Origin: Mycobacterium dioxanotrophicus
GTDB taxonomy: Bacteria > Actinomycetota > Actinomycetes > Mycobacteriales > Mycobacteriaceae
DNA: 64,000 nucleotides
Direction of reading: 5' to 3'
Assembly (NCBI RefSeq): GCF_002157835.1
Contig: NZ_CP020809.1
Coordinates: forward strand, 1,488,001-1,552,000
Shown: positions 858 through 55,420 of the stretch, piece by piece
How the letters are laid out: every line of letters starts with the position of its first letter
Position numbering within the stretch: position 1 is the first letter of the stretch
Made by a program: the position numbers and the translations under genes
The notes under the pieces: model-generated
The model's database searches: none
What the model was told of the DNA's origin: nothing
What the model saw: the letters and a program-made list of their open reading frames with translations, nothing else

Positions 858-1742
<885 letters not shown>

Positions 1743-1808
1743 CCGGTAACGGCTAGAACAGCGGGCGCGGCACGCGCCCTCGGATAAGCGAGTAAGGAAC
1801 ACCACAGC

Positions 1809-2237
1809 ATGGCCCCGAAGAAGAAGGTCGCCGGGCTCATCAAGCTGCAGATCCAGGCCGGGCAGGCCAACCCTGCCCCGCCGGTTGGCCCTGCGCTTGG
1901 TCAGCACGGTGTCAACATCATGGAGTTCTGCAAGGCGTACAACGCCGCGACCGAGTCGCAGCGCGGCAACGTCATCCCCGTGGAGATCACCGTCTACGAG
2001 GACCGCAGCTTCACGTTCGCCCTCAAGACCCCGCCCGCCGCTCGGCTGCTGCTCAAGGCTGCCGGTGTGCCCAAGGGTTCGGGTGAGCCGCACAAGACCA
2101 AGGTCGCCAAGGTGAGCTGGGACCAGGTGCGCGAGATCGCCGAGACCAAGAAGGCCGATCTCAACGCCAACGACATCGACGCCGCGGCGAAGATCATCGC
2201 AGGCACCGCCCGTTCCATGGGTATCACCGTCGAGTAA
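1809..2237 (+). CDS. rplK: 50S ribosomal protein L11
   Basis: L11 binds the GTPase-associated region of 23S rRNA with L10 and L12 and is needed for stringent-response signalling by RelA-type enzymes. The 142-residue protein has the normal length. The N-terminal domain carries the signature [20 protein letters not shown], and the C-terminal RNA-binding domain ends in [11 protein letters not shown]. It sits 66 bp after nusG and 73 bp before rplA, the standard rplK-rplA order. The ATG start is preceded by AAGGAAC. Confidence 0.98.
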
Positions 2238-2310
2238 GACTCCACCAAAGCGTGGGAGAGCTGGCATCGGCTCGGGAACCACGACTCCAACAGACACGAT
2301 TGGATTTTCA

Positions 2311-3018
2311 ATGAGCAAGAACAGCAAGGCATATCGCGAAGCGGCCGAGAAGGTCGACAGGGACAAGCTCTACACGCCGCTGGAGGCCGCGAAGCTGGCC
2401 AAGGAGACGTCGTCCAAGAAGCAGGACGCCACCGTCGAGGTGGCCATCCGCCTGGGCGTCGACCCCCGCAAGGCGGACCAGATGGTCCGCGGCACCGTCA
2501 ACCTGCCGCACGGCACCGGTAAGACCGCGCGCGTCGCGGTGTTCGCCGTGGGCGAGAAGGCCGAGCAGGCTACTGCCGCCGGCGCTGACGTGGTCGGCAG
2601 CGACGACCTGATCGAGAAGATCCAGGGCGGTTTCCTGGACTTCGACGCCGCGATCGCCACCCCGGATCAGATGGCCAAGGTCGGTCGGATCGCTCGCGTG
2701 CTGGGCCCGCGCGGGCTGATGCCGAACCCCAAGACCGGCACCGTCACCCCGGATGTCGCCAAGGCCGTTCAGGACATCAAGGGCGGCAAGATCAACTTCC
2801 GTGTCGACAAGCAGGCCAACCTGCACTTCATCATCGGCAAGGCGTCCTTCGACGAGGCCAAGCTGGCCGAGAATTACGGCGCCGCGCTCGATGAGGTGCT
2901 GCGTGCCAAGCCGTCGTCGTCGAAGGGTCGTTACCTCAAGAAGGTGACCGTCTCCACCACCACGGGCCCGGGTATCCCGGTTGACCCGGCGGTGACCCGG
3001 AACTTCACGGAGGCGTAG
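2311..3018 (+). CDS. rplA: 50S ribosomal protein L1
   Basis: L1 forms the mobile L1 stalk that helps release E-site tRNA, and in many bacteria it represses its own operon. The 235-residue length is normal. The signature [15 protein letters not shown] is present near residues 130-145, followed by the conserved [15 protein letters not shown] stretch. The gene ends the secE-nusG-rplK-rplA series; transcription from the opposite strand converges on it, with a palindromic repeat between. Confidence 0.98.
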
Positions 3019-3047
3019 CGCAGCGGAGCCGCGCAACTTTCTCATCC

Positions 3048-3100
3048 AGTGGCCAGTTGCGGCACAAGATTCTTTGAATCGCGTGTCATAACTGGCCACT
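3048..3100. repeat. 53-bp palindromic repeat, copy 1
   Basis: The arms AGTGGCCAGTT (3048-3058) and AACTGGCCACT (3090-3100) are perfectly complementary. Complementarity continues imperfectly inward, and the centre holds a second small inverted repeat GATTC-TTT-GAATC. A second copy of identical 53-bp length with the same arms lies at 32696-32748. This copy sits between convergent rplA and the sigma factor gene, and its right end supplies the last codons and the TGA stop of the sigma gene. It may act as a bidirectional terminator or be a dispersed non-autonomous element; its function is unknown. Confidence 0.8.
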
Positions 3101-4327
3101 CGGCATTTCTGGGGTGAGTTCGGTGATGCGGCGACGCAGGAACGCCGCGGCCGGCGCGGAGACGTTGTCGCTCTCCAGCGCGATCCCGTACCAGTGCAAG
3201 GCTTCTCTGCTGCGTCCGGCGCGGCGCAGCAGATCCGCCCGGATCGAGGCGACGATGCTGGAGCGTGCCAGACGCGGATCGTCGGCGACCTCGTCGAGCG
3301 CCGCCAACCCGGCGTCGAACCCGTCGCGAAACGCAACGGCCACAGCGCGATTGGCGCGTACCACCGGGGACTCTCCGAGCTCGAGCAGCCGATCGTAGGC
3401 CTGGCAGATGACGGTCCAATCGGTGAGCTGCCAGCTCGGTGCGGTGGCGTGCAGCGCCGCGATCACCGCCTGCGGCAGATAGGGCCCCGCCGCTCCTTCT
3501 GCGAGCCGCAGCTGATCCAGGCCCCGGGCGATGCGGCCACGGTCCCAACGGCTTCGGTCCTGCTCGTCGAGCGGCACTAGCGCACCGTCGTCGTCCACGC
3601 GGGTCTGCCGACGCGAATCATGCAGCAGGACAAGGGCTGCCAGTGCGTGCGCGTCTCGGTCGGCAGGCAGCAGCGAGCACAGTTCACCAGCCAACCGCAC
3701 ACCCTCGTCGCACAGCTCGTCCCGAATGGCGGACGGGCCACCGGTGGACCAGTAGCCCTCCGTGAACACCGAATAGACACACGCCATCACATGTGGTGTG
3801 CGGTCGGGCAGCAGCTCGGGCGGCGGCACCCGCAACGGGATATTGGCTTGGCGGATCTTGTGTTTGGCGCGGGTGAGCCGTTGGCCGACCGCGGCCTCGG
3901 ACTGCAGCAGTGCCCGGGCGATCTCGGCCACGGTGAGCCCGGAGATCAACCGCAGCGTGAGTGCCAACTGCGAAGCCCGGTCGAGCGCCGGGTGGGCGCA
4001 CGTGAACATCATCCGTAATTCGTCGTCGCGAACGGGATGCAGCTCGCGGCCGTTGTCGCGCGCCGTCGTCTCCTCGAACACTGCGGCCAATTCCTTTCCC
4101 GCGCGCGAAGATTCACGACGCAGGCGGTCGAGGGCCCGGTTGCGCGCGACGGTCGTCAACCACGCGCCCGGATTGCTCGGCACCCCATCGGACGGCCAGG
4201 TCCGCAGCGCCTGCGCACAGGCGTCCTGGACGGCGTCCTCGGCGATATCGAGATCGCCGGACCACCGCGCGATGGTGGCCACAGCGGGACCCCACTCCCG
4301 CCGGAAGACGCCGTCCAGCTGGGTCAC
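3086..4327 (-). CDS. ECF42-type RNA polymerase sigma factor
   Basis: The 413-residue protein starts with a sigma-70 region 2 (about 8-75; SGDLDIAEDAVQDACAQAL and WLTTVARNRALDRLRRE) and a region 4 (about 110-170; LRLISGLTVAEIARAL and AVGQRLTRAKHKIRQA). A long C-terminal helical TPR-like extension (about 180-405) then follows, the mark of the ECF42 group. ECF42 genes are known to lie beside DGPF/YCII proteins rather than anti-sigma factors, and such a gene lies 7 bp upstream here. The C-terminal extension is thought to replace an anti-sigma factor in controlling activity. The stop codon lies inside the 53-bp palindromic repeat. Its target genes cannot be read from the sequence. Confidence 0.9.
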   Translation of the reverse strand: MTQLDGVFRREWGPAVATIARWSGDLDIAEDAVQDACAQALRTWPSDGVPSNPGAWLTTVARNRALDRLRRESSRAGKELAAVFEETTARDNGRELHPVRDDELRMMFTCAHPALDRASQLALTLRLISGLTVAEIARALLQSEAAVGQRLTRAKHKIRQANIPLRVPPPELLPDRTPHVMACVYSVFTEGYWSTGGPSAIRDELCDEGVRLAGELCSLLPADRDAHALAALVLLHDSRRQTRVDDDGALVPLDEQDRSRWDRGRIARGLDQLRLAEGAAGPYLPQAVIAALHATAPSWQLTDWTVICQAYDRLLELGESPVVRANRAVAVAFRDGFDAGLAALDEVADDPRLARSSIVASIRADLLRRAGRSREALHWYGIALESDNVSAPAAAFLRRRITELTPEMPSGQL

Positions 4328-4334
4328 CGGGCGA

Positions 4335-5030
4335 CTACAGCCCGGCGATGCCGGACAACTGGCGGAGCTCGATGGCCGAGGCCGGAATCATCGACGCCAG
4401 TTTGACCGCCTCGTCGCGGTCCGCGGCACGCAGCACGTAGAACCCGTTGGCCACCTCCGCGCCCTCGGCGTAGGGGCCGTCGGTGAACGTCACCTTGCCG
4501 TCGCGCACGCGCACGGTGGTCGCGGTCGACGGCGGATGCAGCGGCGCACCGGCAAGCGTCTTGTCGCCGATGGTCTTGGCGAGCTCGACGTGCAGACCTG
4601 CCTGCTTGTTCCATTCGTCGGTGCCCGGCACATTGACGGCCTCCGGCGGTTCCAGGAGCAGGGCGAGCCAGTCGTTGCGGACGGGCTGCTCGGGTGCCTG
4701 CCAATGCACCATGGGCCATACCTCGACGGCGCCGTACTTGGCCGCTGGGATGTCGCGGGCCAGCGCGAGGGCCTCGTCGAGGTTCTCGGCCTCGAATACG
4801 TAGTAGCCCCCGGCGACTTCGGCGCCCTCGGCGAACGGGCCGTCGGTGACGGTCGGATTGTCCGGGCCGCCGGAGATGCGGACAGCACCTGCGGCCGGGG
4901 TCAGCGCATCGCCCGCACGAATGGACGCCGCTGCTTTGGCGTGGAAGTCCAGGTACGCCGACATCTCGGCCGCACCCTGCTCAGGGGTGAGTGCGTTCTC
5001 GCGATTGATCAGTAGGGCGAAGTAGTGCAT
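4335..5030 (-). CDS. DGPF/YCII-domain protein, tandem (ECF42 partner)
   Basis: The 231-residue protein has two YCII-related domains in tandem. Each contains the eponymous motif: DGPFAEGAEVAGGYYVFEA in the first half and DGPYAEGAEVANGFYVLRA in the second. YCII folds are dimeric alpha/beta barrels whose biochemical role in this context is not established. The family is genetically linked with ECF42 sigma factors and is probably a target or modulator of that circuit. The start MHYFALL is preceded by GGGAGA. It heads a two-gene operon with the sigma factor. Duplication within one polypeptide is common in this family. Confidence 0.88.
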   Translation of the reverse strand: MHYFALLINRENALTPEQGAAEMSAYLDFHAKAAASIRAGDALTPAAGAVRISGGPDNPTVTDGPFAEGAEVAGGYYVFEAENLDEALALARDIPAAKYGAVEVWPMVHWQAPEQPVRNDWLALLLEPPEAVNVPGTDEWNKQAGLHVELAKTIGDKTLAGAPLHPPSTATTVRVRDGKVTFTDGPYAEGAEVANGFYVLRAADRDEAVKLASMIPASAIELRQLSGIAGL

Positions 5031-5083
5031 CGTCGTCTCCCGGTGTCAGCGAGTGAGAACCTGCTGTTCCACTCTCTACCCAT

Positions 5084-5112
5084 CCGACGAACGACGCCGC
5101 CCCGATCCGACA
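5084..5112 (-). promoter_or_regulatory. Candidate ECF-type promoter of the YCII-sigma operon
   Basis: Read on the minus strand, TGTCGG (5112-5107) is followed after 17 nt by CGTCGG (5089-5084), about 54 bp upstream of the YCII start codon. ECF42 factors have been described as recognising a TGTCGA-like -35 with a CGA/CGTC-like -10. This would fit autoregulation, but the match is by eye only. Confidence 0.35.
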
Positions 5113-5124
5113 GCTCGCGAGAAA

Positions 5125-5985
5125 TTACTTCTGCAGCGTGAACTGATGGACGCTGATATGGCCCGAGGCGAAGTACTTCTGGCAGCCGTTGAGGTACTTG
5201 TCGTAGCGGTCGTAGACCTCTTGGCTCTGGATCGCGATGGCCTCGTCCTTGTGGGCCTCGAGCGCGTCGGCCCAGATCTTGAGCGTCCGGACGTAGTGCG
5301 GGCCGATCTCCTGCAGCTGGGTGAGCTTGAATCCGGCTTCGATCGCCTTCTCCTGCTCCATCTCCACCGAGGGCAGCCGGCCGCCGGGGAAGATCTCGGT
5401 CATGATGAACCGGGCGAACCGGGCGTCCTCGAACGTCATGTGCAGGCCGAGCTTCTGGCCTTGACGCAGGTCGAACCCGGTGATGTTGTGCAGAAGCATG
5501 GTGCCGTCGTCGGGTAGTGCGTCGTAGGCCATCTTGAAGAAGGCCGGGTAGCGGTCGAATCCGAAGTGTTCGAACGCGCCGATCGACACGATGCGGTCGA
5601 CCTTGTCCTCGAACTCTTCCCAGCCCTGCAGGCGGACCTCGACCTTGCGGTCGGTGGGGATCTTCGACAGCTTCTCGATGGCGTATTCGCGCTGCTCGCC
5701 GGAGAGGGTCAGACCGATGACGTTGACGTCGTACTTCTCGATGGCGCGCGCCATGCCGGCGCCCCACCCGCAGCCGATGTCGAGCAGCGTCATGCCGGGT
5801 TCCAGGCCGAGCTTGCCCAGTGCGAGGTCGAACTTGGCGATCTGCGCCTCGTCGCCGGTCATGTCTTCGCGTTCGAAGTACCCGCACGTGTAGCCCATTG
5901 TCGGGCCCAGGAACAGTTCGTAGAATTCATTCGAAATGTCGTAGATCGACTGCAGTTCTTCGTATTTCGGCGTCAATTCTGACAT
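5125..5985 (-). CDS. SAM-dependent mycolic acid / cyclopropane-fatty-acid methyltransferase
   Basis: This family modifies the meromycolate chain on ACP in the cytoplasm, adding cyclopropane, methyl or oxygenated groups. The 286-residue protein has the family length and features: an N-terminal lid region (YDISNEFYELFLGPTMGYTCGYF), SAM motif I TLLDIGCGWGAGM near residue 68, SIGAFEHFG near 135, and a conserved C-terminal end in SVHQFTLQK. It is one of two tandem paralogues in the place held by mmaA1-mmaA4 in M. tuberculosis. Which reaction it performs cannot be decided from the sequence alone. The ATG start is preceded by GGAGC and a candidate promoter. Confidence 0.93.
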   Translation of the reverse strand: MSELTPKYEELQSIYDISNEFYELFLGPTMGYTCGYFEREDMTGDEAQIAKFDLALGKLGLEPGMTLLDIGCGWGAGMARAIEKYDVNVIGLTLSGEQREYAIEKLSKIPTDRKVEVRLQGWEEFEDKVDRIVSIGAFEHFGFDRYPAFFKMAYDALPDDGTMLLHNITGFDLRQGQKLGLHMTFEDARFARFIMTEIFPGGRLPSVEMEQEKAIEAGFKLTQLQEIGPHYVRTLKIWADALEAHKDEAIAIQSQEVYDRYDKYLNGCQKYFASGHISVHQFTLQK

Positions 5986-6003
5986 GTTCGAAATTGCTCC
6001 AAG

Positions 6004-6031
6004 CTTATAGATTTCACTCGCGAAAAGTCAG
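6004..6031 (-). promoter_or_regulatory. Candidate SigA-type promoter of the 5125-5985 methyltransferase
   Basis: On the minus strand CTGACT (6031-6026) and TATAAG (6009-6004) are separated by 16 bp. The -10 element lies 18 bp before the ATG, giving a leader of about a dozen bases that includes the GGAGC ribosome-binding site. The second methyltransferase gene is 195 bp further upstream, so this unit probably has its own promoter. Confidence 0.45.
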
Positions 6032-6180
6032 CCTACAGCAGGTCAGGCCCGGTAGGCCTTGACTGCTGTCAACGGATTGTGCTGGCAAACATGTGATGGG
6101 CGCCACCCTGCCTGCTGCATCATCGGTGCCAGCGAGAATATGTTTGTGTCCGGCGCGGTAGCGAAGCCACGACGACACGC

Positions 6181-7053
6181 CTAGCGGTTCAGAGTGAACT
6201 GGTTCACGTCGATGTAGCCGATCCGGAAGGCGTTCGCACAGCCGGTGAGGTAGTGCATGTACCGGTCGTAGACCTCTTCCGACTGGATCGCGATGGCCTC
6301 GTCACGGTGGTCCTGCAGCGCCGCCGCCCACAGGTCCAGGGTGCGTGCGTAGTGCGACTGCAGCGACTGCCTGCGGGTCAGGGTGAATCCCGCGTTTCCG
6401 GCGTGTTCCTCGACCATCTCGATCGTCGGGAGACGCCCGCCCGGGAAGATCTCGGTGACGATGAACCTGATGAACCGGGCCATGTCGAACGTCAACGGGA
6501 TGCCGCGCTCCTGCGCCTGCTTGGGGTGCAGGCCGGTGATGGTGTGCAGCAACATCACGCCGTCGGGCGGCAGGGCGTTGTGGGCGAACCGGAAGAAGTC
6601 GGCGTAGCGCTCATGGCCGAAATGCTCGAAGGCGCCGATCGACACGATGCGGTCCACCGGTTCGTCGAACTGCTCCCAGCCGCTGAGCAGCACGCGCTTG
6701 CTGCGCGGGCTGTCCGAGCCGTCGAACAACTGCTGCACGTGCGCCAGCTGATTGCGGCTCAACGTGAGGCCGACGACGTTGACGTCGTAACGGTCGAGAG
6801 CGCGCATCATCGTTGCGCCCCAACCACATCCGACGTCGAGCAAGGTCATGCCCGGCGCTAACCCCAACTTGCCAAGGGACAGATCGATCTTCGCGAGCTG
6901 AGCCTCGTCCAGCGGCATGTCGTCGCGTTCGAAGTACGCGCAGCTATAGGTCCTGCTGGAATCCAGGAACAGTGCAAAAAAATCGTCGGACAGGTCGTAA
7001 TGGGCCTGTACGTCTTCGAATTTCGGCGTGAGCTTGGCCGGATCTTTGGCCAT
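6181..7053 (-). CDS. SAM-dependent mycolic acid methyltransferase, second paralogue
   Basis: This 290-residue paralogue of the gene at 5125-5985 shares its layout: lid region HYDLSDDFFALFLDSSRTYS, SAM motif TLLDVGCGWGATM, SIGAFEHFGHERY, and a C-terminus ending in NQFTLNR. I start it at the ATG giving MAKDPAKLTPKFEDV, which has a GAGAGG ribosome-binding site; an ATG 14 codons upstream adds residues not expected in the family. The two paralogues differ most near the C-terminus, which may reflect different double-bond substrates. M. tuberculosis has four such genes here, so this genome has fewer local copies. Confidence 0.93.
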   Translation of the reverse strand: MAKDPAKLTPKFEDVQAHYDLSDDFFALFLDSSRTYSCAYFERDDMPLDEAQLAKIDLSLGKLGLAPGMTLLDVGCGWGATMMRALDRYDVNVVGLTLSRNQLAHVQQLFDGSDSPRSKRVLLSGWEQFDEPVDRIVSIGAFEHFGHERYADFFRFAHNALPPDGVMLLHTITGLHPKQAQERGIPLTFDMARFIRFIVTEIFPGGRLPTIEMVEEHAGNAGFTLTRRQSLQSHYARTLDLWAAALQDHRDEAIAIQSEEVYDRYMHYLTGCANAFRIGYIDVNQFTLNR

Positions 7054-7211
7054 GGTGTTGCCTCTCGGAGTCGTCCGAGGGCTGCGCCGCATCACGATTT
7101 GATGAGTCCGCCCCCAGACTGCAGCAAAGCCTAAACCGGCATGAGGCAGCTACCGAGCTTCGCCGACCCGGCAAACGCGCAGTCGGAGGAGTCTTGTTGC
7201 AGACTCACGAA

Positions 7212-8117
7212 CTAGCCCGCAGAGGAGAAGTTCGTCTTGAGCTCACCGACGACCTCGTCCCACACCGGTTCAGGTAGCTCGTGGCCCATGCCGTCGATCA
7301 ATACCAAGCGGGCGCCCGCGATCGCCTTGGCCACGGCACGTCCACCGAACGGGCGCATCAGCCGGTCGGCGAGGCCGTGGATCACCACGGTGGGAGCGGT
7401 GATGCGCCGGTCGTAGCGCAACAGGCTGCCGCTGCCGAGGATCGCGGCGAAGTGCCGCGCGATGCCGGCCGGGTAGTACGACCGGTCGTAGAGTTCGGCG
7501 GCCTCGGCACGCATCTGGTCGTCGGGAGTCGGATAGGCCGGGCTGCCGTTGAGCTTGCCGAGCCGAACGGCGTTGTCGATGATGGCATCTCGCGTCGAAC
7601 CCGGTGGCGGACCGGTGACCAACGACAGCAGCTGCTTGATCCCCGGCGGCGGCAGGAGCGCCTTGTTGTTACTGGAGAAGATCACCGCGAGGGTCTTGGT
7701 CCGGTGCCGGTACTGCGCGGCGAAGACCTGCGCGATCATCCCGCCCATCGAGCCGCCGACGACGTGCGCGCTGTGGATGCCGAGGTGATCGAGCAGGGCC
7801 GCGGCGTCGTCGGCGATGTCCTCGAGCGTGTACACCGACGGGCTGCGCAACCCCAGGAACGAGCGGGCCATGCGGAACGGCAACGGGGTGTCGACGCGCT
7901 GGCCGGACAACTTGCTCGACAACCCCACGTCGCGATTGTCGTAGCGGATGACACGCAGTCCCTGGTTGACGAGCTTCTCGCAGAAACCGTTGCGCCACAA
8001 CAACAACTGCGCGCCGAGCCCCATGATCAGCAGGACCGCGGGATCGTTCGGGTCGCCCATGTCCTCGTAGTAGATGTCGAGATCGCCGGACTTGGCATAA
8101 CCGGTACGCACTTGCAT
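7212..8117 (-). CDS. lipG: Alpha/beta hydrolase (LipG-like esterase/lipase)
   Basis: The 301-residue protein is an alpha/beta hydrolase: oxyanion region LLIMGLGAQ near residue 30, nucleophile elbow GGSMGGM near 117, acidic residue region IHGLADRL and catalytic histidine in IDGMGHELPEP near the C-terminus. No signal peptide is visible. The position between the mycolate methyltransferases and the ABC1 kinase matches lipG (Rv0646c). The start MQVRTGYAKSG has GAGGAG 7 bp upstream; extending to an upstream start gives 44 low-quality Arg/Gly residues. The natural substrate is unknown; a membrane lipid or thioester is plausible. Confidence 0.88.
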   Translation of the reverse strand: MQVRTGYAKSGDLDIYYEDMGDPNDPAVLLIMGLGAQLLLWRNGFCEKLVNQGLRVIRYDNRDVGLSSKLSGQRVDTPLPFRMARSFLGLRSPSVYTLEDIADDAAALLDHLGIHSAHVVGGSMGGMIAQVFAAQYRHRTKTLAVIFSSNNKALLPPPGIKQLLSLVTGPPPGSTRDAIIDNAVRLGKLNGSPAYPTPDDQMRAEAAELYDRSYYPAGIARHFAAILGSGSLLRYDRRITAPTVVIHGLADRLMRPFGGRAVAKAIAGARLVLIDGMGHELPEPVWDEVVGELKTNFSSAG

Positions 8118-50353: not shown

Positions 50354-51046
50354 GTGGCTGTGCGCATACTTGTCGTTGACGATGATCGCGCTGTGCGTGA
50401 ATCACTGCGGCGGTCGCTTTCCTTCAATGGCTATTCAGTCCAGCTCGCCCAGGACGGGGTCGAAGCTCTCGATCTGATCGCCGATGATCGGCCCGATGCG
50501 GTGGTTCTCGATGTGATGATGCCGCGACTGGACGGTCTTGAAGTCTGTCGGCAGCTTCGCAGCACAGGTGACGATCTACCCATCCTGGTGCTGACGGCCC
50601 GCGATTCCGTGTCCGAGCGGGTCGCCGGGCTGGATGCCGGGGCCGACGACTACCTACCCAAGCCGTTCGCGCTTGAGGAGCTGCTCGCGCGGATGCGGGC
50701 GTTGCTGCGTCGTACCGTGTCCGACGACGGTGCCGAATCGCAGAAGATGACGTTCTCGGATCTCACCCTGGATCCGGTGACCCGCGAGGTCACCCGTGGC
50801 GAACGCCAGATCAGCTTGACCCGCACGGAGTTCGCGCTGCTGGAAATGCTGATCGCCAATCCGCGCCGGGTGCTCACCCGCAGCCGCATCCTCGAAGAGG
50901 TGTGGGGCTTCGATTTCCCCACCTCGGGCAATGCGCTCGAGGTCTACATCGGTTACCTGCGCCGTAAGACCGAGGCCGACGGTGAGCTGCGGCTCATCCA
51001 CACCGTCCGCGGCGTCGGGTACGTGCTGCGGGAAACGCCGCCCTGA
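50354..51046 (+). CDS. mprA: Two-component response regulator MprA
   Basis: MprA is the OmpR/PhoB-type regulator of the MprAB envelope-stress system, which activates sigE, sigB and pepD. The 230-residue protein has the receiver domain with acidic DDD at 9-11, phospho-acceptor aspartate in [13 protein letters not shown] near 53, and lysine in [12 protein letters not shown] near 104. A C-terminal winged helix follows ([35 protein letters not shown]). The GTG start at 50354 lacks a Shine-Dalgarno; a TAGAGC -10-like element 10 bp before it suggests a leaderless mRNA. MprA boxes lie just upstream. Confidence 0.97.
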
Positions 51047-51050
51047 TCGG

Positions 51051-52538
51051 ATGATGTCGCTCAATCCGAACACCTGGCGACCGGGAACGCTGCCGAACAC
51101 CAGTTCACTGTCGTTGCGCTGGCGCGTGATGATGCTGGCGATGTCGATGGTGGCGATGGTCGTCGTGCTGATGGCCGTCGCCGTCTATGCCGTGGTGTCC
51201 CGCGCGCTCTACGACGACCTCGACAACCAGCTGCACAGCCGGGCCCGGCTGCTCATCGAGAGTGGGTCGCTGGCCGCCGATCCGGGCAAGGCCATCGAGG
51301 GCACGGCCTACTCCGACGTCAACGCCATGCTGGTGATCCCGGGGCGCTCGATCTACACGGCCAATCAGGAGGGGCAGATGTTGCCCCTCGGACAGCCGGA
51401 GAAGGACGTGATCTCCGGCGAGCTGCTGATGTCGCTGCGCACGGTCAACCATCAGCGGGTGCTCGCGGTGCATCTGGCCAACGGCAGCTCCCTGCTGATC
51501 TCCAAGAGCCTGGCGCCGACCGGGCAAGTACTCAGGCGGTTGGGCACCGTGCTGCTCATCGTCGGCGGTGTCGGTGTCGCCGTGGCTGCGATGGCAGGTG
51601 GTGCCGTCGCCAGGGCCGGTCTGCGGCCGGTGGGCCGACTCACCGAAGCCGCTGAACGCGTCGCGCGGACCGATGACCTGCGGCCCATTCCGGTCGTCGG
51701 CTGCGACGAGCTCGCCCGGCTCACCGAGGCGTTCAACATGATGCTGCGCGCGTTGGCCGAATCGCGCGACAGACAGGCCAGGCTGGTGTCCGACGCGGGG
51801 CACGAATTGCGTACGCCGCTTACTTCATTGCGTACCAACGTCGAGCTGCTGATGGCCTCGCAGGCTCCCGGGGCGCCGCCGCTGCCCGAGGAGGAGATGG
51901 CGGGGCTGCGTGCCGACGTGATCGCACAGATCGAGGAACTGTCGACCCTGGTCGGCGATCTGGTGGACCTGACGCGCGACGATGCGGGCGGTGTGACCCA
52001 TGAACCGGTCGACATGGTCGAGGTGGTCGACCGCAGCCTGGAGCGAGTTCGTCGGCGCCGCAACGATATTCAATTCGACGTCGCGATGACGGGCTGGCAG
52101 GTCTACGGCGACGCGCCCGGCTTGGGCTGGGCCGTGCTCAACCTGCTGGACAACGCCGCCAAGTGGAGCCCGCCCGGTGGCCGGGTCGCGGTGTCGTTGC
52201 GCCAGATCGATCCCGTGCACGCCGAATTGGTGGTGTCCGATCACGGGCCCGGCATCCCGCCGCAGGAGCGCCGGCTGGTGTTCGAACGGTTCTACCGCTC
52301 GACGGCCGCGCGGGCGATGCCCGGATCGGGCCTGGGATTGGCGATCGTGCAACAGGTTGTGCTGAAACACGGTGGCGCGCTTCGGATTGACGAAACCGTG
52401 CCGGGCGGTGACCCGCCGGGGGCGTCGATTCACCTGATCCTGCCCGGCACGCCGCTTCCCGCCGGGCTACCCGAGGTCGCGGCGACACGCGCCGACGACG
52501 CCACCGACGACGATGCGGTGAGCGCGGACAAAAGGTGA
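51051..52538 (+). CDS. mprB: Sensor histidine kinase MprB
   Basis: The 495-residue membrane kinase has a first membrane helix (about 26-48), an extracytoplasmic sensor region (about 49-160), a second helix (about 164-186), a HAMP domain and the H-box SDAGHELRTPLTSLRTNVEL with the phosphorylated histidine. The N-box LGWAVLNLLDNAAKWSPPGG, G1 DHGPGIPP and G2 GSGLGLAIVQQ follow in the ATPase domain. It lies 4 bp after mprA. In M. tuberculosis MprB is held off by DnaK in the periplasmic region and responds to envelope stress. An Asp-rich tail is present. Confidence 0.97.
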   Translation: MMSLNPNTWRPGTLPNTSSLSLRWRVMMLAMSMVAMVVVLMAVAVYAVVSRALYDDLDNQLHSRARLLIESGSLAADPGKAIEGTAYSDVNAMLVIPGRSIYTANQEGQMLPLGQPEKDVISGELLMSLRTVNHQRVLAVHLANGSSLLISKSLAPTGQVLRRLGTVLLIVGGVGVAVAAMAGGAVARAGLRPVGRLTEAAERVARTDDLRPIPVVGCDELARLTEAFNMMLRALAESRDRQARLVSDAGHELRTPLTSLRTNVELLMASQAPGAPPLPEEEMAGLRADVIAQIEELSTLVGDLVDLTRDDAGGVTHEPVDMVEVVDRSLERVRRRRNDIQFDVAMTGWQVYGDAPGLGWAVLNLLDNAAKWSPPGGRVAVSLRQIDPVHAELVVSDHGPGIPPQERRLVFERFYRSTAARAMPGSGLGLAIVQQVVLKHGGALRIDETVPGGDPPGASIHLILPGTPLPAGLPEVAATRADDATDDDAVSADKR

Positions 52539-52583: not shown

Positions 52584-52604
52584 TTCTCTAAGTGGATTCT
52601 CAGT
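52584..52604 (+). promoter_or_regulatory. MprA-like boxes upstream of pepD
   Basis: TTCTCTAA (52584-52591) and TTCTCAGT (52597-52604) form direct repeats 13 bp apart, resembling the TCTCAG pair before mprA. pepD is a known MprA target, so this site predicts activation of the pepD locus, about 90 bp upstream of its start. Confidence 0.5.
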
Positions 52605-52693
52605 TCACCTGGGCAACCTGGGGAACACCTTCTTCGTTTGTTGAGTAGTACGCGAGCCGATAGACCTTTACAAGAGAAGAGCACCGCACCGCC

Positions 52694-54053
52694 ATGACGA
52701 ACCACCCCAGGTACTCATCACCACAGCAGCCCGGCCAGGCTCCCGGCGGTGGCGCTCCCGGCTACCAGGGCAATCCCGACCCCTATCAGTCGCAGGCCTA
52801 TGACTGGCGCTACGCGCGTCAGCAGCCGCAATCGCCGCCTCATCAGCAGCCACACGCCCACCAGCAGCCTCAGCAGCCGGCATATCGCCCGCCGTATGAC
52901 CCCTACCGCGTCGCCCCGGCGACACCGCAGGCGGTCGCGCCCGTCAAGAAACGCGGCAGGGGCCGGTCTGGCGGCCGGTGCGCTGGCCCTGGCCGTGGTG
53001 TCGGCGGGAATCGGCGGTGGCGTCGCGACCGTCGTGACCCACCAGGACCGTCCGCACCTGGGCGCCGAGTCCAACAGCGCGGCGCCCAGTGTGCCTGCCG
53101 CGGCGCTGCCCGCCGGTTCGGTCGAGCAGGTGGCGGCCAAGGTGGTGCCCAGCGTGGTCAAGCTGGAAACCGACATGGGCCGGGCCTCCGAAGAGGGATC
53201 GGGCATCATCCTGACCGCCGACGGTTTGATCCTGACCAACAACCACGTCGTCGCTGCCGCCAAGCAGGCGCCGGGTGCTCCCGGCGGCGGCGCGCAGACC
53301 AAGGTGACGTTCTCGGACGGCAGCACCAAGCCGTTCACCGTCGTCGGCACCGATCCCAGCAGCGACATCGCCGTGGTCCGTGCGCAGGGCGCGTCGGGGC
53401 TCACCCCGATCACGCTCGGGTCCTCGCAGAACCTGCGGGTCGGCCAGGACGTGGTGGCGGTCGGCTCGCCGCTGGGACTCGAGGGCACGGTGACCACCGG
53501 CATCGTCAGTGCACTCAACCGTCCCGTCGCCGCAGGCGGCGACGCACGCAACCAGAACACCGTGCTCGACGCCATCCAGACCGACGCCGCGATCAACCCG
53601 GGCAACTCGGGCGGCGCGCTGGTCAACATGAACGGCGAGCTCGTGGGTATCAACTCCGCGATCGCGACCATGGGCGGTGATTCCCCGCAGGCGCAGAGCG
53701 GGTCGATCGGCCTGGGCTTCGCGATCCCGGTCGACCAGGCCAAGCGGATCGCCGACGAGCTGATCCAGAACGGCACGGCGACCCACGCGTCGCTCGGGGT
53801 TCAGGTGAGCAATGACGCCACCACCGACGGCGCCAAGATCGTCGAGGTGACCAAGGACGGGGCTGCCGCCGCGGCCGGGTTGCCCAGCGGTGTGGTGGTC
53901 ACCAAGGTCGACGATCGGGTGATCCCGAGTGCCGATGCGCTCGTTGCCGCCGTGCGGTCCAAGGCGCCTGGTGAGAAGGTCACTTTGACCTACCTCGACC
54001 AGACTGGCAAACCGCAGACCGTGACTGTCACCCTGGGGAAGGCGGACCAGTGA
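52694..54053 (+). pseudogene. pepD: HtrA-type serine protease PepD, frameshifted
   Basis: PepD is the membrane-anchored HtrA/DegP-like protease of the MprAB-SigE stress response. The reading frame starts at ATG 52694 with MTNHPRYSS and a Pro/Gln-rich cytoplasmic segment, but after PVKKRGRGR it leaves frame. The membrane helix (AAGALALAVVSAGIGGG), trypsin-like domain (NNHVV, SSDIAVVR, catalytic INPGNSGGALV) and PDZ domain continue in the +1-shifted frame to a stop at 54053. Removing one G from GGGG at 52959-52962 restores a continuous PepD of normal build. Whether this is a real mutation, an assembly error or a slippery site cannot be told here. As read, an unshifted product of 328 residues lacks any protease. 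Confidence 0.9.
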
Positions 54054-54133
54054 GGATCCTGACGCCGGCTCCGGGACAAGTGTCACTGCGAGTGGCTGCG
54101 CCGCTGTCTGCCCGCACATATACGGTTGCAGGC

Positions 54134-54628
54134 ATGGAACAACCAGGGGAGTTGGTGGGGCGGGCACTCGTCATCGTCGTCGACGATCGCACCGCCCACG
54201 GCGAGGAGGACCACAGCGGTCCGTTGGTCACCGAATTGCTCGGTGAAACCGGTTTCGTCGTCGATGGCGTCGTGGTCGTTTCGGCCGATGAGGTCGAGAT
54301 TCGCAATGCGCTGAACACGGCAGTCATCGGTGGTGTGGATCTGGTGGTGTCCGTCGGCGGCACCGGCGTGACGCCGCGCGATGTCACCCCGGAGGCCACG
54401 CTCGACATCCTCGACCGTGAGCTGCTCGGCATCGCAGAAGCGCTGCGCGCCTCGGCCTTGTCCGCAGGCATCGCCGATGCCGGGCTGTCGCGCGGGCTGG
54501 CGGGTATTTCGGGCAGCACGCTCGTGGTGAACCTGGCCGGTTCCCGGTCAGCGGTCCGCGACGGCATGGCCACACTGGGCCCGCTGGCGGTGCAGATCAT
54601 CGGCCAGTTATCAAGCTTGGACATCTAA
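54134..54628 (+). CDS. moaB2: Molybdenum cofactor biosynthesis protein MoaB2
   Basis: MoaB/MogA-fold proteins adenylate molybdopterin during cofactor synthesis; MoaB2 of M. tuberculosis also binds SigE. The 164-residue protein has VIVVDDRTAHGEEDHSGPLV, DLVVSVGGTGVTPRDVTPEA (the conserved GGTG loop) and GLSRGLAGISGSTLVVNLAG. I prefer the ATG at 54134, which gives the family N-terminus and follows a TATACG -10-like element by 9 nt (leaderless). A GTG at 54050 overlapping the pepD stop as GTGA would add 28 residues that do not look conserved. It corresponds to Rv0984. Confidence 0.92.
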   Translation: MEQPGELVGRALVIVVDDRTAHGEEDHSGPLVTELLGETGFVVDGVVVVSADEVEIRNALNTAVIGGVDLVVSVGGTGVTPRDVTPEATLDILDRELLGIAEALRASALSAGIADAGLSRGLAGISGSTLVVNLAGSRSAVRDGMATLGPLAVQIIGQLSSLDI

Positions 54629-55114: not shown

Positions 55115-55420
55115 GTGCCTGCGTTGCCGGGCGGATGCCTCCCGCTCTCGGCCGGCTTCAACCCGCTGGGCTCGGTCATCACCCCGAACCTGTTCCCCGG
55201 TGTGTCGATCTCGGCCGACCTGGGTAACGGCCCGGGCATCCAGGAGGTCGCGACCTTCTCCGTCGACGTCAAGGGTCCGGCCGGCGGGGTGGCGGTCTCC
55301 AATGCGCATGGCACCGTGACCGGCGCGGCCGGTGGCGTGCTGCTGCGCCCCTTCGCCCGTCTGATCGCCTCCACCGGTGACAGCGTCACCACCTACGGCG
55401 AACCCTGGAACATGAACTGA
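55115..55420 (+). pseudogene. 3' remnant of an Msp-type porin gene
   Basis: Residues from about 13 onward match the C-terminal half of MspA-family porins: SVITPNLFPGVSISADLGNG, PGIQEVATFSVDV, GGVAVSNAHGTVTGAAGGVL, LRPFARLIASTGDSVTTYGE and the exact C-terminus PWNMN. Msp porins are octameric outer-membrane channels of fast-growing mycobacteria of about 184 mature residues. Here the signal peptide and roughly the first half are gone; the GTG at 55115 leads into unrelated residues. No signal peptide or ribosome-binding site precedes it, so it is almost surely non-functional. M. smegmatis carries an intact Msp gene near its mprAB-pepD-moaB region, which fits local decay. Confidence 0.9.

What the first reader, a model, noticed from the sequence alone, without database searches (positions are those of the whole stretch)
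52959..52962. Single-base frameshift breaks pepD in front of its membrane anchor
The PepD Pro/Gln-rich N-terminus runs in one frame up to PVKKRGRGR, while membrane helix, protease and PDZ domains lie in the +1-shifted frame. Removing one G of GGGG restores an uninterrupted PepD. If real, this strain lacks an MprAB/SigE-controlled HtrA protease while keeping mprA, mprB and its MprA-like boxes. It could also be an assembly error or a slippery site.
Basis: partly seen in the sequence, partly recalled or inferred. Interest (0 to 1): 0.72.

Follow-up and report, generated by a model that had tools for sequence, protein, structure and literature searches.

The report
Probable assembly error in protease gene
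A stress-protease gene of a mycobacterium appears cut in two by a one-base frame break, but the break lies in a stretch that is unusually hard to sequence, in an assembly that shows such errors elsewhere, so it is most likely an artefact and ordinary.

Summary
In detail: the PepD N-terminus (52694 on) and the helix-protease-PDZ part (to 54053) lie in different frames, switching at about 52958-52966. No examined relative shares this: the three nearest (about 95% DNA identity) and 79 of 79 evaluable loci have one frame, so a programmed shift is rejected. The protease part shows no decay: 27 codon changes private to this genome, none changing an amino acid. A real break must therefore be very young. 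The assembly itself is suspect. Two copies of a 3.9 kb repeat on its contigs C4 and C5 differ by twelve one-base gaps, all in G/C runs, and no substitution. The pepD site is among the 0.8% most GC-rich and 0.2% most foldable of 1500 random 120-base places. One of the two other clear frame breaks (3 of 191 genes in all) sits in an equally extreme place. My verdict is a residual assembly error (about 0.75), a young real mutation (0.2), or a real break with the protease still made (0.05). Even if the break is real, "lacks an HtrA protease" goes too far: an intact paralogue of the same layout exists. Beside it, an MspA-type porin gene has lost its 5' half through a deletion of about 519 bases, which looks more genuine.

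The parts
52694..52958 (+). PepD N-terminal cytoplasmic piece (Pro/Gln-rich, YDWRYA and YDPYR motifs), first frame
52958..52966 (+). junction interval where the coding frame changes; one-base length difference to the near relatives, with substitutions close by
52965..54053 (+). membrane helix, trypsin-like protease and PDZ domain of PepD, second frame (Trypsin_2 about 53196-53651, PDZ_2 about 53790-54035)
52900..53020 (.). very GC-rich, strongly foldable stretch around the junction
52959..53680 (+). out-of-frame Arg-rich tail that the first frame would encode if the break is real
50354..51046 (+). mprA, response regulator (Response_reg, Trans_reg_C)
51051..52538 (+). mprB, sensor kinase (HAMP, HisKA, HATPase_c)
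54050..54628 (+). moaB2-like gene (MoCF_biosynth), downstream in the published mprA-mprB-pepD-moaB2 operon; the true start may lie further in
55115..55420 (+). open frame holding the remnant of an MspA-type porin gene; 5' half missing through a deletion at about 55141-55143 (neighbouring, separate event)

Best explanation
The frame break is most likely an uncorrected one-base error in a long-read-type assembly, at a GC-rich, hairpin-prone spot inside an intact, functional pepD. Shown: the break is present in the assembly and in none of the relatives examined; the protease part has not decayed; two copies of a repeat in the same assembly differ only by G/C-run indels; the site has extreme GC content and foldability. 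Inferred: that the genome was assembled from long reads, and that sequencing or polishing failed at this spot.
For: (1) One frame in M. brisbanense, M. aquaticum and sp. 852013 and in 79 of 79 evaluable loci of 80. (2) In 362 codons after the junction, 27 changes private to this genome, 0 nonsynonymous (25 and 0 in 337 codons), while about 73% of all single changes would be nonsynonymous. By my arithmetic an unconstrained gene would show about 74 over the whole branch, so a real break would be younger than roughly 4% of that branch. (3) A 3.9 kb repeat on contigs C4 and C5 of this assembly: 12 one-base gaps and 0 mismatches in 3913 columns, all in G/C runs. Ten bases are missing in the C5 copy and two in the C4 copy, each time where the other copy agrees with Rhodococcus plasmid records. 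(4) The pepD site: 0.8% of 1500 random places are as GC-rich and 0.2% as foldable; the esterase-like break: 0.07% and 0.5%.
Against: The twelve cases in the repeat are lost bases in two-copy DNA; the pepD event is an added base in DNA without a second near-identical copy, with substitutions beside it. In unique DNA this assembly is no worse than a relative's. Clear breaks: 3 of 191 genes here against 2 of 190 in M. brisbanense. With M. aquaticum genes as query: 5 of 101 here against 7 of 102 in M. brisbanense. Private indels inside genes: 4 here, 7 in M. brisbanense, 1 in M. aquaticum. The TauD-like break is not in an extreme place (14% and 25%), nor is the doubtful one at 6338 of the joined stretch (86% and 86%). 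A neighbouring porin gene carries a real-looking deletion, so this strain may truly have lost genes here. No reads were available.
Confidence: 0.75

Rival explanations
1. A genuine, very recent one-base mutation broke pepD in this isolate. The cell makes about 89 native residues plus an Arg-rich tail without anchor or protease, keeps mprA and mprB, and leans on an intact PepD-like paralogue.
For: Break present in the assembly and clean. Frame breaks in this genome are no more frequent than in M. brisbanense. A porin gene about 0.5 kb downstream of the moaB2-like gene is truncated by a deletion of about 519 bases. A paralogue of 506 aa with the same layout could buffer the loss. pepD deletion strains of M. 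smegmatis are in use and viable (passages of PMC3062566).
Against: No decay at all. A PepD-type match is present in 98 of 98 genus genomes searched, own included, and the gene is intact in 79 of 79 evaluable loci. The site is extreme in GC and folding, and the assembly shows G/C-run errors.
Confidence: 0.2
2. The break is real but the protease is still made, by initiation at an in-frame start upstream of the helix (ATG 52800 or ATG 52896, giving a short basic tail and a normal helix) or by low-level ribosome slipping.
For: The protease frame is open back to GTG 52749, with two ATG codons before the helix and a basic tail that suits an N-in anchor. Purifying selection on the protease frame is intact. 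Many HtrA-like proteins lack the cytoplasmic domain (passage of PMC3062566).
Against: Neither ATG has a better-than-background ribosome-binding match (-2.6 and -1.7; mean -4.0, sd 2.7 for 81 ATG codons; the usual start has -5.8). None of 79 evaluable loci shows such a shift. No slippery heptamer is visible by eye.
Confidence: 0.05

Closest known systems
PepD (Rv0983) of the mycobacterial mprA-mprB-pepD-moaB2 locus, HtrA-like protease
   Same: Gene order, cytoplasmic N-terminal piece, helix, trypsin-like domain with GNSGG, PDZ domain; best solved relative 1y8t/2z9i
   Different: In this assembly the N-terminal piece is out of frame with the rest
Residual indel errors of long-read assemblies in G/C runs and GC-rich hairpins (general knowledge, recalled)
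   Same: One-base length difference, GC-extreme foldable site, no decay of the reading frame, sister errors in the same assembly
   Different: Added base outside the repeat, whereas the twelve cases in the repeat are lost bases
Young frameshift pseudogenes of bacteria
   Same: Single-base break in an otherwise intact gene
   Different: No further decay, in a gene of which a PepD-type match is present in 98 of 98 genus genomes searched

Membership tests
HtrA-like protease PepD | trypsin-like domain with catalytic Ser motif and a PDZ domain | tested here: met
   Trypsin_2 1.5e-33 and PDZ_2 2.3e-11 on the protease piece; GNSGG in its translation
HtrA-like protease PepD | next to mprA-mprB and moaB2 | tested here: met
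   domains at 50354-52538 and 54050-54628; operon described in PMC11656743 (passages)
HtrA-like protease PepD | N-terminal piece, helix and protease in one frame | tested here: not met
   met in 79 of 79 evaluable loci
HtrA-like protease PepD | protease activity | not testable with these tools
   needs protein work
programmed ribosomal frameshift gene | shift conserved in relatives | tested here: not met
   0 of 79 evaluable loci show it
programmed ribosomal frameshift gene | slippery heptamer followed by a stop or stimulator | tested here: inconclusive
   judged by eye only: no heptamer and no stop near the junction; a strong local fold exists
established pseudogene | relaxed constraint after the break | tested here: not met
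   27 private codon changes, 0 nonsynonymous
residual assembly indel | same assembly shows indel errors | tested here: met
   12 gaps and 0 mismatches in 3913 columns between two copies of one repeat
residual assembly indel | site in hard-to-sequence DNA | tested here: met
   0.8% GC rank, 0.2% folding rank among 1500 random places
residual assembly indel | raised rate of frame breaks against relatives' assemblies | tested here: not met
   3 of 191 against 2 of 190; 5 of 101 against 7 of 102
residual assembly indel | reads disagree with the assembly | not testable with these tools
   no reads held

The most novel reading that the evidence does not exclude
The isolate has genuinely and recently lost two neighbouring envelope functions, the anchored PepD protease and one MspA-type porin. 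That would be a snapshot of envelope rewiring in a mycobacterium, with the PepD-like paralogue taking over.
Probability: 0.12. Interest if true: 0.35.

Novelty: not a real feature. Interest (0 to 1): 0.08.

Why it matters
It warns against reading gene loss from single-base frame breaks in this assembly, and gives a reusable check: compare the two copies of a repeat in the assembly, and rank break sites by GC content and foldability. If the break were real, it would be a natural loss of a protease of which a PepD-type match was found in 98 of 98 genus genomes searched.

Tried and rejected
Programmed shift: rejected, 0 of 79 evaluable loci. Old pseudogene: rejected, no nonsynonymous private change. 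Generally poor assembly: not supported in unique DNA; 3 of 191 genes broken here; the reverse search lists 4 of 190, two of them mirror images of breaks here, so 2 of 190 in M. brisbanense, one of them near an ORF start. Adding more sequence gave the same 191 testable genes, now of 463. Also: M. aquaticum genes broken here 5 of 101 (pepD, the esterase-like gene, and three at about residue 40, 97 and 47 of ORFs that I find doubtful), in M. brisbanense 7 of 102; genes of this genome broken in M. aquaticum 4 of 97 (pepD and esterase-like mirrors included); M. brisbanense genes broken in M. aquaticum 1 of 99; 18 private non-3n length differences in 120,888 bases covered by both relatives, 4 inside genes, two of which (6338 and 6389 of the joined stretch) have neighbouring indels; M. 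brisbanense 37 and 7, M. aquaticum 20 and 1. An earlier, narrower version covered 85,268 bases.

Rows dropped: gene 1 piece 2, and the mprA, mprB and moaB2 lines, because my offsets were misaligned for one relative or the other. Naming the strain through its plasmid contigs failed (near records may be left out by the tool). Literature: a listing of 12 papers; two searches, for MprA box with pepD and direct repeat, and for pepD with frameshift, mycobacterium and HtrA-like, gave 0 papers. White 2010 is not held. PMC12113857 (passages) gives an MprA motif for Corynebacterium only.

Full report
Observation. The window lies at G000:C1:1488001-1552000, in an 8.08 Mb genome of 5 contigs, one of them 7.6 Mb. 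The PepD N-terminal piece begins at 52694 and the helix, protease and PDZ piece ends at 54053 in another frame, with the change at about 52958-52966. The first frame meets no early stop but runs on as a 239-residue Arg-rich tail to 53680. Both pieces are PepD: the protease piece hits Rv0983 PepD structures at E 9.2e-140 and carries Trypsin_2 and PDZ_2 domains.

Relatives. A scan of genome contigs with the protease piece kept the best 80 of 339 confirmed loci. The three nearest, M. brisbanense JCM15654, M. aquaticum RW6 and Mycobacterium sp. 852013-50091, are about 95% identical in DNA over the locus and have one frame. Of the 80 loci, 79 show the Pro/Gln-rich stretch, helix and GNSGG protease in one open frame; the other, L073, begins inside the gene at a contig end and cannot be judged. 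In a separate draw, 98 of 98 genomes of the genus, own included, hold a close protease match (that call does not test the N-terminal frame). A conserved, programmed shift is therefore excluded. No second genome of the window's own species was found, so the break cannot be tested within the species.

Selection. From just after the junction to the end, 362 codons were compared with M. brisbanense and M. aquaticum: 27 codons are private to this genome and none changes an amino acid. Over 337 codons the figures are 25 and 0, and 73% of all possible single changes would be nonsynonymous. Rough arithmetic (mine, ignoring mutation bias) gives about 74 expected nonsynonymous changes on an unconstrained branch, so a true break would be younger than about 4% of that branch. 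The N-terminal piece varies more, as it does among the relatives.

Quality of the assembly in unique DNA. In 120,888 bases covered by both relatives, this genome has 18 private non-3n length differences, 4 of them inside genes; the same count gives 37 and 7 for M. brisbanense, 20 and 1 for M. aquaticum. By protein comparison, 3 of 191 testable M. brisbanense genes are broken here (pepD, an esterase-like gene, a TauD-like gene; the last two named by eye), against 2 of 190 the other way once mirror images are set aside. With M. aquaticum genes as query the counts are 5 of 101 here and 7 of 102 in M. brisbanense. Unique DNA is thus no worse than in a relative's assembly.

Quality in a repeat. Contig C5 carries a mercury-resistance module with an IS21-like element. 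Against two Rhodococcus plasmid records the element lacks one base in each of ten C/G runs, while the adjoining 4.6 kb matches one record with 1 mismatch and no gap. A second copy of the element lies on contig C4. Over 3913 shared columns the two copies differ by 12 one-base gaps and 0 mismatches, all in G/C runs. Ten bases are missing in the C5 copy and two in the C4 copy, each time where the other copy agrees with the Rhodococcus records. Twelve indels and no substitution between two copies in one genome are best read as uncorrected base-run errors, not evolution. The likely cause, my inference, is that polishing reads were placed unevenly between the copies.

The site. The 120 bases around the junction are 78% GC. 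Of 1500 random places in 464 kb of this genome, 0.8% are as GC-rich and 0.2% fold as stably. The esterase-like break ranks 0.07% and 0.5%. The TauD-like break ranks 14% and 25%, and the doubtful one at 6338 of the joined stretch 86% and 86%. Two of three clear breaks thus sit where sequencing and polishing are known to be weak (general knowledge). The relatives share most of this GC-rich sequence, so the site could also favour true slippage mutations.

Weighing. A residual assembly error explains privacy, lack of decay, site and company. Against it: the cases in the repeat are lost bases in two-copy DNA, while the pepD case is an added base outside the repeat, with substitutions beside it, and the rate of breaks in unique DNA is ordinary. 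I give 0.75 to error, 0.2 to a very young real mutation, 0.05 to a real break with the protease still made. For the last, the protease frame has ATG codons at 52800 and 52896 before the helix, but neither has a ribosome-binding match above background.

If it were real. The genome holds an intact PepD-like paralogue of 506 aa with an N-terminal linker, helix, GNSGG protease and C-terminal part (67% identical over 259 residues), and seven Trypsin_2 matches in all, pepD included. In M. smegmatis, loss of pepD raises sensitivity to cell-wall drugs and detergents; in M. tuberculosis, PepD is 464 residues with a cytoplasmic part (1-101), helix, protease and PDZ (passages of PMC3062566 seen). [quoted passage not shown] The SigE and MprA-box wording of the finding was not tested; a block at about 52584-52605 is strongly conserved in the six-sequence alignment, but I hold no source for the mycobacterial box.

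Neighbouring change. An MspA-type porin gene downstream has lost its 5' half and the sequence just upstream of its start through a deletion of about 519 bases; residues 127-218 remain, 100% identical to M. brisbanense, and the 5' end is present in M. aquaticum and sp. 852013 before their contigs end. Seven other MspA matches, full or nearly so, remain in the genome. A deletion of this size at an unremarkable site looks genuine, but reads should confirm it.

The odds did not change.

Noticed in passing
window 55115-55420 (junction about 55141-55143): MspA-type porin gene lacking its 5' half through a deletion of about 519 bases relative to M. brisbanense; the remaining 92 residues are 100% identical. 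Seven other MspA matches in the genome.
   Followed up: partly
L250 (G000:C5) 952-8000 and L254 (G000:C4 copy): Mercury-resistance module with IS21-like element 99.8% identical to a Rhodococcus plasmid over 7059 columns; the C4 and C5 copies differ by twelve one-base gaps in G/C runs and no mismatch over 3913 columns.
   Followed up: yes
G000:C1 about 1330923: Second clear frame break in a conserved 589-residue esterase-like gene (named by eye), in one of the most GC-rich places sampled.
   Followed up: partly
G000:C1 about 1658258: Third frame break, in a TauD-like dioxygenase gene of 306 residues (named by eye); not in a GC-extreme place.
   Followed up: partly
L035-L114, PepD N-terminal pieces: Very variable Pro/Gln-rich linker in which short motifs recur in many relatives (YDWRYA, YDPYR, a basic stretch before the helix); not counted, function unknown.
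   Followed up: no
window 54050-54053: A GTG of the moaB2-like open frame overlaps the pepD stop; of 13 relatives printed, 12 have GTG and 1 ATG at this overlap. It may only reflect the last pepD codon; whether it is a real start is untested.
   Followed up: no
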